From assembly GCA_000525675.1 (NCBI GenBank), contig CP002190.1:310001-374000 (forward strand): 64,000 nucleotides of DNA, in the 5' to 3' direction. Below, piece after piece: positions 25,398-29,221 of the stretch. The stretch is from Bdellovibrio bacteriovorus W. GTDB taxonomy: Bacteria > Bdellovibrionota > Bdellovibrionia > Bdellovibrionales > Bdellovibrionaceae. The number at the start of each line of letters is the position of its first letter. The stretch's first letter is position 1. The notes under the pieces were generated by a model. It did not search any database and was not told the DNA's origin. It worked only from the letters and a program-made list of their open reading frames with translations. The position numbers were made by a program, and so were the translations under genes.

Positions 25398-26186
25398 ATG
25401 AAGAAAAATATTTTTACGATCGTTTCTATAGTTTTCGTAGGTCTAGTTGCGGTTCTTTATTTTAAAAATAAGTCATCCACGGATGCGTCCCCGAACGGAA
25501 CCCGTGTGGCGATTGAAGAGATGGGTGATCCCGCTCAAGGATCTCAAGCGGACGCGGCTGGCAATAAACCAGAATCTGCCAACCAGACAGAAGTTTTTCC
25601 TGGAGAGCCTTCCCACGAGGCTTCTGGCTTCTTACCTACTGCAACTGAAAACCCAGATGCTTTTAGAAAGTACCAAGCTACTTTCAAAGAGATGGCAACT
25701 TGTCTAAACATGGAGATGGAACAGTTTTCTTCAAGCCAACAAATGAACTATGAAACGTTTCATAAAGTGATTAGTCCTGATCTGGGGGACGTAGTAACAA
25801 CGAGCACTGAGTGGACGTCGACAGATATTCAAATGGCAAATGGTGAAGTGCGCAGAATTCACGTTGAGTATGGCCCAGATATCGATGGTCCACCAAAGCG
25901 CACTTTGAAATACTACAGTATTTCAAAAAATGGGGCACAAAAAGAAATGCCACTTTCGAATGATCAAACTTACAACCCAACCGACACATTCATCGCAGGT
26001 TTAGAAGCAGATGGAAAAACAGTAGGGATGTCTTTAGCGAGAAAGATTTTCTATCAAAACGGAGACGATCTTTTGCTAGTCGAAAGAAACGGCAAGATCC
26101 TATCTTTCGAGTTGCCACACGATGGGGCAACGTTCACCTGCAATAATTTTGATGATGCAACAAAAATGACCTGCCGCTGCCAGTAA
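25398..26186 (+). CDS. Membrane-anchored or secreted protein of unknown function
   Basis: A 262-residue protein with a single N-terminal membrane segment (FTIVSIVFVGLVAVLYF, about residues 5-21). An Asp/Gly/Asn-rich linker follows, then a globular extracytoplasmic domain from about residue 85. The domain contains three or four Cys (ATCLNM, then TCNNF and TCRCQ at the C-terminus), probably disulfide-linked. No family recognised. It ends just before two structured repeats, one of which could end its transcript. Confidence 0.65.
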   Translation: MKKNIFTIVSIVFVGLVAVLYFKNKSSTDASPNGTRVAIEEMGDPAQGSQADAAGNKPESANQTEVFPGEPSHEASGFLPTATENPDAFRKYQATFKEMATCLNMEMEQFSSSQQMNYETFHKVISPDLGDVVTTSTEWTSTDIQMANGEVRRIHVEYGPDIDGPPKRTLKYYSISKNGAQKEMPLSNDQTYNPTDTFIAGLEADGKTVGMSLARKIFYQNGDDLLLVERNGKILSFELPHDGATFTCNNFDDATKMTCRCQ

Positions 26187-26188
26187 GC

Positions 26189-26305
26189 TTCGTGAAAAAG
26201 GCCTGCCTGCTTCGTTGTCGGCAGGCTTTCTCACTTCGGCGTACATTGAGTACGCCTGCGCTGCGAGAGCCCACCTCCGCCTCGCATTCAGACCTTTTTG
26301 ACGAA
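26189..26305. repeat. 117-bp cloverleaf-like structured repeat
   Basis: Imperfect terminal inverted repeats of 17 bases (26189-26205 with 26289-26305, 15 matches) enclose three hairpins. These are GCCTGCC/GGCAGGC at 26201-26226, GGCGTAC/GTACGCC at 26238-26256 and TGCGAG/CTCGCA at 26262-26286. The first hairpin followed by CTTTTT on the minus strand could end transcripts from valS. The overall shape recalls REP-type or tRNA-like palindromic elements. No protein is supported in it. Confidence 0.6.
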
Positions 26306-26378
26306 CCTTCAAGTAGTTTGGGTTGTCGTCTCTAAAAGATAAATCACAGAGTAGTAATTAAAGAAGATGAGTTGTGGA

Positions 26379-26525
26379 ATTTGCAGAATATAGAATGCAG
26401 ATTTCCGGTGCGGAAGTGGCCTTTGCGGGGGCCTGGACGGCCCGAACCGCTGGTACAGCGGCCGCAATGAGCCCGGATGGCGTGCCACTGGAGCGCTGGG
26501 GATCTGCATTCTATATTCTGCAAAT
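26379..26525. mobile_element. 147-bp element: two inverted hairpin units around a GC-rich core
   Basis: A perfect 24-bp inverted repeat (26379-26402 and 26502-26525) bounds a 99-bp core, of which I count 71 G or C, far above its surroundings. Each arm, extended by flanking bases, is itself a hairpin with loop GAATATAGAA: a ten-pair stem at 26376-26405 and an eleven-pair stem at 26498-26529. The core holds GGGCC/GGCCC (26429-26443), CCGCTG/CAGCGG (26447-26461) and AGTGGC/GCCACT (26415-26420, 26484-26489). It resembles a MITE or a two-unit REP mosaic. No target duplication is visible. Confidence 0.6.
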
Positions 26526-26539
26526 CCCCGAGAGCTCTC

Positions 26540-29221
26540 TTATTTGAAACGAGTAAGAGCGTCTTTAGCTGCTTCCAGTTGAATTTGTGACTGGTGCAAA
26601 AGAACTCTGTCGGCTGCGATAACGTCTTCGTCAGCATTGGCGATAAACTTTTCGTTAGAAAGTTTACCGTTTAACATACCGATATCTTTCGTTAACTTTT
26701 CAACAAGCTTGTTGATGCGTTTTACTTCTTCGTCAAAGTCCACCAAGCCCTCAAGAGGGATGATTACTTTCACTGTATTTTCGCCAACAACAACTGGAGC
26801 CACGGCACATTTCATCATGTCGCCTTCAGCGCCAATTGAAAGATTCTCGATACGTCCCAAAGTTTCAATCGCTGTTTTATTAGACTCAAGAATTTTCTGA
26901 GTCGTGCCATTGCCAGAAGCAAGGCGAACATTGATTTTTACAGCAGGGCTGATGCGATTTTCACCGCGGATGTTACGAATCGCTGTAACAACTTCTTTTA
27001 CGATATCAATTTCTAGAGCTGCTTGCTCTGAAGCTAAATCCAAGAAGGCCTTGTCGTTACGGATGTTTGGATACTCTGCAATGATACAAGCCTCAGTGCG
27101 AATCGGTAGCTTCTGGTAAATCTCTTCAGAGATAAACGGAGCAAACGGGTGCAGAAGGCGCATCATGCGATTTAAAACTTGAGCCATTACTAGTTGAGTA
27201 GCAGATCGCTCTTCAGAAGGACTTCCTGATAAAATCGGTTTTGTGAATTCGATGTACCAATCACAGAACTGATTCCAGATGAAGTGATATAAAGCTGTAG
27301 CAGCGTCAGAGAATCTTTCTGCTTCCATGGCTTCATCAACTGTTTTTTCAACTTCAGCAAGTTTTGCAATGATCCACTTATCAAAAACACTGATCTTTGC
27401 GCTATCCGGAATAGCTTCCATTCCTTTGCTCGGAACTTGGAAGTCATTTAGGTGCGATAATGCGAAACGAGCCGCGTTCCAAATCTTGTTCATGAAGTTT
27501 CTATAGCCTTCAAGACGTTGTTCGCTGAACTTCAGATCTTTTCCAGAGAACAAGTGTGCGGTGAAAGTAAAGCGCAGAGCATCGGCTCCGTACTTTTCAA
27601 TCATCTCAACAGGATCAATGGAGTTTCCTAAAGACTTCGACATTTTGCGACCTTGAGAGTCTCTGACCAAGCCGTGGATATAAACAGTTCTGAAAGGAAC
27701 ATCACGTTTAAATTCAAGACCCATCATGATCATTCTAGCAACCCAGAAGAAAATGATATCGTGACCCGTAACAAGATAGCTTGTCGGGTAGAAAGTTTTA
27801 AGAGTCTCTGTTTCTTCAGGCCAGCCCATAGTTGAAAACGGCCAAAGAGCGGAACTGAACCAAGTATCTAAAACGTCTTCGTCTTGACGAACATGAGTGT
27901 CACCGCACTTCGCGCAAGCTTTTACATCAGACTCACTGACTGTGTGGTGATTGCATTTTTCACAATACCAAACTGGGATACGGTGGCCCCACCAAAGCTG
28001 ACGAGAAATACACCAGTCTTCAATGTTATTCAGCCAATGAAGGTAAACCTTTGTCCAAGACTCTGGTTCAAAGCGGATCGTACCGTTTTCAACAACGCGT
28101 TTAGCAGGAGTTGCAAGGTCTTCCATTTTTAAGAACCACTGTTCAGAAAGGAATGGTTCAACCACAGCTCCAGAACGAGAGCAGTGACCTACTGAATGAA
28201 CGTGTGGCTCTTCTTTTTCTAAAAGTTCTTGAGCTTTTAAATCTTCAAGAACGCGTTTGCGAGCCTCTTGAACTTTAAGACCTGCATAAGGGCCTGCGTT
28301 CTCATTCATCTCAGCGCGTTTTGTAAGAATGTTGATGAACTCTAAATTATGAGTCACACCGATTTTGTAATCGTTGAAGTCATGGGCAGGTGTGATCTTA
28401 ACAACTCCTGATCCAAAATCTTTATCAACATAAGTGTCAGCGATGATTGGAATCTTGCGATTGATCAAAGGAATGACAACATTTTTGCCAATCAGATGTT
28501 TGTATCTTTCATCTTCTGGATGAACACACACTGCAGAGTCACCAAGCATTGTCTCTGGACGAGTTGTCGCAACAACGAGGAAGCCAGAACCATCTTCAAG
28601 TGGGTACTTGATATGATAAAGGGCACCTTTGATTTGTTTGTGCTCAACTTCAAGATCAGAGATAGCGGTCTCAAGGGGGCCTGACCAGTTTACAAGTCGC
28701 TTGCCACGATAGATAAGACCTTTTTCATAGAGGCTTACGAAAACTTTACGAACAGCTTTTGAAACGCCTTCGTCCAAAGTAAAGACAGCGCGATCCCAAT
28801 CACAAGAGTCCCCGAGGCGACGCATTTGTGAATAAATTCTGTTTCCGTATTGGTGTTTCCATTCCCAGATTTTTTCGACAAACTTTTCACGGCCTAAATC
28901 TTGGCGCGAAAGACTTTCTTCTTTTTTTAGTTCACGCTCAACGACAGATTGCGTGGCAATCCCAGCGTGATCCGTTCCTGGTAACCACATTGTATTAAAA
29001 CCACTCATGCGCTTCCAGCGAATCAGAGTGTCTTGGATCGTATGATCCAAGGCATGACCCATGTGCAAGAAGCCCGTGACGTTTGGAGGAGGAAGGATGA
29101 TTGAAAATGGAGGTTTGGTAGATTGGTCTTCAGATTTGAAGTAACCAGCCTCTTCCCACCATTGATAAGTTTTGTTTTCGACCTCTGCAGGGTTGTAGCG
29201 ATCAGAGAGTTGTTGTGACAT
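26540..29221 (-). CDS. valS: Valyl-tRNA synthetase
   Basis: An 893-residue class I aminoacyl-tRNA synthetase charging tRNA-Val. The HIGH motif appears as HMGH (PPPNVTGFLHMGHAL) near residue 50, and KMSKS is present in GRKMSKSLGNS. The editing (CP1) domain lies between them (around residues 190-350). A zinc-like Cys cluster (CEKCNHH ... CAKCG) precedes DTWFSSALWPF. The C-terminal coiled-coil arm that contacts tRNA is complete to the end. Size fits the family. No T-box or other leader is seen upstream. The 3' end lies 14 bases from the 147-bp element. Confidence 0.97.
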   Translation of the reverse strand: MSQQLSDRYNPAEVENKTYQWWEEAGYFKSEDQSTKPPFSIILPPPNVTGFLHMGHALDHTIQDTLIRWKRMSGFNTMWLPGTDHAGIATQSVVERELKKEESLSRQDLGREKFVEKIWEWKHQYGNRIYSQMRRLGDSCDWDRAVFTLDEGVSKAVRKVFVSLYEKGLIYRGKRLVNWSGPLETAISDLEVEHKQIKGALYHIKYPLEDGSGFLVVATTRPETMLGDSAVCVHPEDERYKHLIGKNVVIPLINRKIPIIADTYVDKDFGSGVVKITPAHDFNDYKIGVTHNLEFINILTKRAEMNENAGPYAGLKVQEARKRVLEDLKAQELLEKEEPHVHSVGHCSRSGAVVEPFLSEQWFLKMEDLATPAKRVVENGTIRFEPESWTKVYLHWLNNIEDWCISRQLWWGHRIPVWYCEKCNHHTVSESDVKACAKCGDTHVRQDEDVLDTWFSSALWPFSTMGWPEETETLKTFYPTSYLVTGHDIIFFWVARMIMMGLEFKRDVPFRTVYIHGLVRDSQGRKMSKSLGNSIDPVEMIEKYGADALRFTFTAHLFSGKDLKFSEQRLEGYRNFMNKIWNAARFALSHLNDFQVPSKGMEAIPDSAKISVFDKWIIAKLAEVEKTVDEAMEAERFSDAATALYHFIWNQFCDWYIEFTKPILSGSPSEERSATQLVMAQVLNRMMRLLHPFAPFISEEIYQKLPIRTEACIIAEYPNIRNDKAFLDLASEQAALEIDIVKEVVTAIRNIRGENRISPAVKINVRLASGNGTTQKILESNKTAIETLGRIENLSIGAEGDMMKCAVAPVVVGENTVKVIIPLEGLVDFDEEVKRINKLVEKLTKDIGMLNGKLSNEKFIANADEDVIAADRVLLHQSQIQLEAAKDALTRFK

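What the first reader, a model, noticed from the sequence alone, without database searches (positions are those of the whole stretch)
26379..26525. 147-bp element with perfect 24-bp inverted ends and a 72% GC core
Each end is itself a hairpin with the same ten-base loop, one on each strand. Outside the identical 24 bases the flanks differ (GGA..TTC on one side, GGGG..CCCC on the other) yet both still pair, which suggests selection on both hairpins. The core has at least two more hairpins and a base composition unlike its surroundings, so it was probably acquired. It could be a non-autonomous mobile element, a recombination site or a structured RNA gene.
Basis: partly seen in the sequence, partly recalled or inferred. 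Interest (0 to 1): 0.7.

Follow-up and report, generated by a model that had tools for sequence, protein, structure and literature searches.

The report
Bdellovibrio transposon-linked hairpin repeat family
The 147-bp element is one of about 18 copies in this genome of an undescribed hairpin repeat found across the predatory bacterium genus Bdellovibrio; the same hairpin forms the tail of a jumping gene there, and its two arms change in step so that they keep pairing.

Summary
The 24-bp inverted ends are part of a 45-nt pair of arms, and the RNA fold has z = -9.4. It is not a lone element. The genome holds 18 copies, 23 of 24 genomes of the genus (Bdellovibrio) hold 1-31, and no Rfam family matches.
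Across 107 copies, 99.1% of the core's pairs form and 17 of 22 show two-sided changes. The outer arms (about 31 bp) differ from copy to copy yet stay complementary. Mismatches are of the stable kind on one strand only, so that strand is the one that folds.
In four copies here the hairpin is the 3' end of an insertion sequence: terminal inverted repeats, a 290-aa distantly IS1-like transposase (two of the four broken), then the hairpin. Three other genomes have the same layout.
Solo copies lie at transcript 3' ends, mostly with the right end against a converging gene. After valS the element is absent in all 22 relatives examined.
Most likely it is an IS-derived non-autonomous palindromic repeat. 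Arm pairing is kept by concerted, template-switch-like change plus selection on a folded strand. Transposition in trans and function are inferred. The 'each end is a hairpin' detail is not a family trait.

The parts
26376..26420 (+). left arm of the long outer stem, running into helix P2
   Evidence: inverted repeat I1, 45 nt, 82% complementary; MFE structure
26418..26486 (+). conserved branched core, matched by covariance model R1
   Evidence: G000:C1:336404-336499, E 7e-20 with flanks; alignment A1
26418..26421 (+). helix P2, 5' side (pairs with 26482-26486)
26423..26428 (+). helix P3, 5' side (pairs with 26462-26467)
26429..26443 (+). helix P4 hairpin; loop type NGGAN (ACGAU in many relatives)
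26447..26461 (+). helix P5 hairpin, most variable pairs of the core, covarying
26471..26481 (+). helix P6 hairpin GCC-CGGAU-GGC, conserved loop
26484..26528 (+). right arm of the outer stem; its outer end lies about 12 nt from the valS stop codon
   Evidence: valS stop at 26540
26540..29221 (-). valS, the converging gene whose 3' end abuts the element
   Evidence: ORF; conserved in 22 relatives

Best explanation
The element is a solo copy of a Bdellovibrio family of dispersed hairpins that is also the 3'-terminal structure of an insertion sequence (TIR AAACTGATCC, 290-aa distant IS1-like transposase, 3' UTR hairpin, TIR). Shown: multicopy family, core fold with strong covariation, arms unique per copy yet complementary, linkage to the transposase, preference for transcript 3' ends, absence after valS in relatives. 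Inferred: solo copies are IS-derived, non-autonomous (MITE- or REP-like) units mobilised or left behind by such elements; they fold as the + strand of RNA (sense to the transposase) or as single-stranded DNA; arm pairing is kept by concerted, template-switch-type changes together with selection on the core; once placed they act as a stable 3'-end structure for neighbouring transcripts. Which step of transposition or expression the fold serves is not known.
For: Copies: own genome 18 at E <= 0.001, 23 of 24 genus genomes. Structure: 17 of 22 pairs change on both sides, 363 two-sided cells against 86 in shuffles, 99.1% paired. Strand: in strict stems of about 150 copies, G.U on + 88 against 34 on -, A.G or G.A 123 against 7 pyrimidine-pyrimidine. 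IS linkage: L047, L048, L049 and L054 share over 1.2 kb left of the hairpin, encoding the transposase, intact in two and broken in the other two; the hairpin lies about 50-70 nt after the transposase stop in G000, G010, G011 and G013, and these transposases fall in one clade, support 0.987, which also holds G019, G049 and G054. TSD-like 9-mers GAAGTGATC (L068) and GAGTGCTTT (L069), read. Context: right neighbour converges in 111 of 150, hit end usually 32-65 nt from its stop; A6 tracts, the T-tract of the converging terminator, cluster 40-79 nt right of the hit. Occupied/empty pair: L104 (G001) against G018. Concerted arm change: L122/L151 9 two-sided, 0 one-sided; L127/L123 5 and 0.
Against: Most genomes with many solo hairpins (G005 26, G012 30, G017 21, G021 18) lack this transposase. 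Solo copies lack the AAACTGATCC ends and I found no clean TSD for the window copy. Many solos are old: orthologous loci align at about 70% identity between species. G049 and G054 carry clade transposases without an R1 hit, and G019's IS keeps a stem but lacks the core.
Confidence: 0.6

Rival explanations
1. A host structured-RNA or 3'-UTR element family of Bdellovibrio, spread by duplication and recombination, was captured once by an insertion sequence; the IS is a passenger and the hairpin's real job is in host transcripts.
For: Genus-wide and mostly vertical; most genomes lack the transposase; one copy in HD100 lies in the attack-phase RNA APsRNA6.
Against: Position in APsRNA6 is antisense to the strand that the mismatch test favours; no promoter or terminator match by consensus around the window copy; strong dispersal and lineage-specific sites.
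Confidence: 0.22
2. Decayed IS ends without function; pairing is kept only by replication template switching between the arms.
For: Two-sided arm changes without intermediates, almost no G-U in core helices; template switching is described as able to create and maintain hairpins (PMC8794818).
Against: Unpaired core positions (GAA linker, P6 loop and flanks) are conserved over the aligned copies and mismatches are strand-asymmetric; neutral palindromes should not keep these.
Confidence: 0.15
3. An intrinsic terminator or bidirectional terminator after valS.
For: It occupies the place where relatives have the valS terminator.
Against: No T-tract after the stem, no terminator-like match; in HD100 the mapped RNA runs through a copy to about 130 nt beyond it.
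Confidence: 0.03

Closest known systems
MITEs, including ERIC/RU-type intergenic palindromes
   Same: short, dispersed, intergenic, palindromic, relation to a larger IS with transposase
   Different: solo copies lack the IS terminal repeats; conserved branched core inside the palindrome; arms unique per copy; no TSD shown for the window copy
REP elements and RAYT (GTAG and CGTC families, PMC3733652)
   Same: dispersed palindromes at gene 3' ends
   Different: far larger (about 150 nt), no Y1 transposase in this genome, associated with a DDE-type IS1-like transposase
IS1 family
   Same: weak profile matches to IS1 transposase, zinc ribbon plus HTH plus conserved acidic residues, 9-bp duplications
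   Different: below the curated cut-offs; carries a roughly 200-nt structured 3' UTR
Transposon-encoded RNAs (omegaRNA of IscB/TnpB, bridge RNA of IS110)
   Same: structured RNA-like segment next to a transposase gene at an IS end (from own knowledge)
   Different: other transposase type, no guide-like pairing with target or donor found

Membership tests
MITE of the linked IS | dispersed multicopy short element without ORF | tested here: met
MITE of the linked IS | shares the terminal inverted repeats of the autonomous element | tested here: not met
   window copy and most solos lack AAACTGATCC; they share the hairpin only
MITE of the linked IS | target-site duplication and clean empty site | tested here: inconclusive
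   site empty in 22 relatives but flanks diverged; L104 against G018 a 252-bp indel with an imperfect short repeat
REP/RAYT | Y1 (HUH) transposase in the genome | tested here: not met
   PF01797 absent in G000
IS1 family (the linked IS) | transposase above curated profile cut-off | tested here: not met
   NF033558 44.1 bits of 100; PF03400 16.7 of 24.1
IS1 family (the linked IS) | 8-9 bp target duplication, DDE residues | tested here: inconclusive
   9-mers in L068 and L069; conserved D118, D196 and D240, E not settled
Known Rfam family | covariance model match above gathering score | tested here: not met
   none in the window or 11 copies; best E 0.058, chance miRNA
Structured RNA | compensatory change beyond controls | tested here: met
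   but template switching could mimic part of it (PMC8794818)
Structured RNA | a transcript of the + strand | not testable with these tools
   no RNA data for this genome; in HD100 only the opposite strand of one copy is reported
IS-encoded guide or bridge RNA | RNA segment complementary to donor or target DNA | not tested
   arms had only chance-level matches elsewhere in the genome; no systematic test

The most novel reading that the evidence does not exclude
An IS1-like DDE insertion sequence encodes a structured RNA in its 3' UTR that works with its transposase (targeting to transcript 3' ends, or cis-restriction), and Bdellovibrio has kept tens of stand-alone copies: a new kind of transposon-encoded RNA.
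Probability: 0.12. Interest if true: 0.9.

Novelty: new variant of a known kind. Interest (0 to 1): 0.6.

Why it matters
It defines an undescribed, genus-wide repeat family in a model predatory bacterium, linked to an identifiable transposase, with a conserved branched fold that no RNA library holds. It gives a natural series of more than 150 hairpins whose arms are replaced as a unit while pairing is kept, useful for testing whether template switching or selection maintains long stems. It also suggests how some insertion sequences settle harmlessly at transcript 3' ends, and re-reads one published attack-phase 'small RNA' as a small ORF plus this element.

Tried and rejected
Rfam at gathering and at relaxed E: nothing but chance miRNA hits. 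RAYT/IS200 mobilisation: no Y1 transposase in the genome. Terminator or promoter consensus at the window copy: none. CsrA-type binding from the GGA loops: the motif lacks the required A (own knowledge) and many P4 loops are ACGAU, dropped. Composite element read from the close pairs: the pairs are all divergent, but the 15 spacers examined (two of them orthologous to others) are unrelated low-GC DNA without shared genes, so pairs reflect two hairpins at two converging genes. Phage origin: no exact core in viral contigs. Spread outside the genus: exact-pattern scan of GTDB contigs gave only Bdellovibrio records (near relatives may be left out); the model finds four copies in one genome of a sister genus and one or two weak ones in two others.

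Full report
What was checked. Its 24-bp ends are exact reverse complements and its core is 72% GC against 44% for the window. The ends belong to 45-nt arms, and the RNA folds with z = -9.4. The predicted structure is a long stem that closes a branched core of helices P2 to P6. The hairpin inside each arm is present but is not a family trait: over 152 copies arms fold locally like shuffles.

It is a repeat. A nucleotide search of the own genome (3,006,992 bp, one contig) found about a dozen copies. A covariance model from 40 copies finds 18 copies at E <= 0.001 here and copies in 23 of 24 genomes of the genus, 1 to 31 each. In the order, three genomes of sister genera hold one to four weaker copies. 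Records with the exact core pattern are titled Bdellovibrio sp.. One genome, G006, has the length I recall for B. bacteriovorus HD100, and its c-di-GMP-I riboswitch lies at the published merRNA coordinates, so I treat it as HD100. No Rfam family matches.

Structure. On 107 copies 99.1% of the core's pair cells are standard, 17 of 22 pairs show two-sided changes, and 363 cells changed on both sides against 86 in shuffles; slid controls collapse. Conserved unpaired positions include a GAA linker and the P6 loop. G-U pairs are almost absent (about 9 of 2296 cells, my count). The outer stems have a strict length of about 31 bp, and their sequences differ widely between copies. Mismatches within them are stable types on the + strand: G.U 88 against 34, purine-purine A.G 123 against 7. 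This marks the + strand, sense to the transposase, as the folded one. It does not tell RNA from single-stranded DNA.

Link to an insertion sequence. Four own copies share more than 1.2 kb left of the hairpin. The two intact ones encode a 290-aa protein with zinc ribbon, helix-turn-helix and weak IS1 profile matches below cut-off; the other two are broken by a stop or deletion. The unit begins AAACTGATCC and ends GGATCAGTTT, with the hairpin model match about 70 nt after the stop. Relatives with 58-63% identity in G010, G011 and G013 have the hairpin in the same place; G019 has the stem without the core. Their transposases form one clade with two sister-genus proteins that lack the hairpin. Related elements across the order have short tails or ordinary terminators. 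TSD-like 9-mers are seen in L068 and L069.

Where copies sit. With ORFs called mechanically, the right-hand gene converges on the element in 111 of 150 cases, typically with the stop codon 32-65 nt from the model match, that is next to the stem end, or about 100-130 nt away with a terminator between. A-tracts, the T-tract of the converging terminator, cluster there. Close pairs are always divergent with unrelated spacers, as expected if each hairpin faces its own gene.

History. After valS, no hairpin is found in the 22 other genomes, so the window copy is lineage-specific; an ordinary terminator is visible in most of them. Elsewhere many solos are orthologous between species at about 70% flank identity. 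Between two species about 92% identical at these loci (G001, G018), three of the orthologous hairpins compared have both arms replaced (57-69% identity) while flanks are 88-93% identical. In others two-sided changes occur without one-sided ones: 9 and 0, 5 and 0. Template switching is reported to create and maintain hairpins in this way (PMC8794818); ectopic conversion is an alternative. One occupied/empty pair was found (L104 in G001 against G018), a 252-bp difference with a breakpoint in an A-tract; insertion and deletion cannot be told apart.

Expression. In HD100 one copy lies inside APsRNA6, a 655-nt attack-phase RNA (PMC3627812), on the opposite strand. That RNA appears to be a 92-aa ORF followed by the hairpin and runs on past it. 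So a copy is transcribed as a 3' UTR, in the orientation opposite to the one the mismatches favour. One overlap among 14 copies could be chance.

Verdict. A new, IS-linked palindromic repeat family with a structured core. It works like a MITE or REP, but membership in either is not established: the solos lack the IS ends, and the genome lacks a RAYT. Direction of descent (IS to solo, or solo captured by IS), mobility and function are open. No description of the family was found in the held papers or Rfam, which does not exclude one elsewhere.

Noticed in passing
window 26186-26330: A second dispersed repeat of about 120 bp, 39 matches in the genome, many as head-to-tail pairs 10-40 bp apart. 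It also lies left of four other hairpin copies.
   Followed up: partly
L059, L060, L063, L064, L065 (own genome): A second hairpin subfamily with a different core (GGGATCTCCGGCAGGCATGGATGCCTGCGACCGCC...), found by the same model at weaker E.
   Followed up: no
L056 and L058 (own genome): Two hairpins carry a similar insertion of about 60 nt inside the P4 loop, itself with hairpins.
   Followed up: no
L234, G006:C1:1338787-1339441: The published attack-phase sRNA APsRNA6 contains a 92-aa ORF that looks like a small membrane protein, so it may be an mRNA.
   Followed up: partly
L071, L081, L082, L083: The wider IS1-like family of the order shows 9-bp duplications starting with TAA or TAG (TAAAGATTC, TAGAACATT, TAAAGATCA, TAGAATTCC), a hint of insertion at stop codons.
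   Followed up: no
L105, L145 and relatives: Orthologous hairpin loci recur in several species next to the same genes; not annotated further.
   Followed up: no
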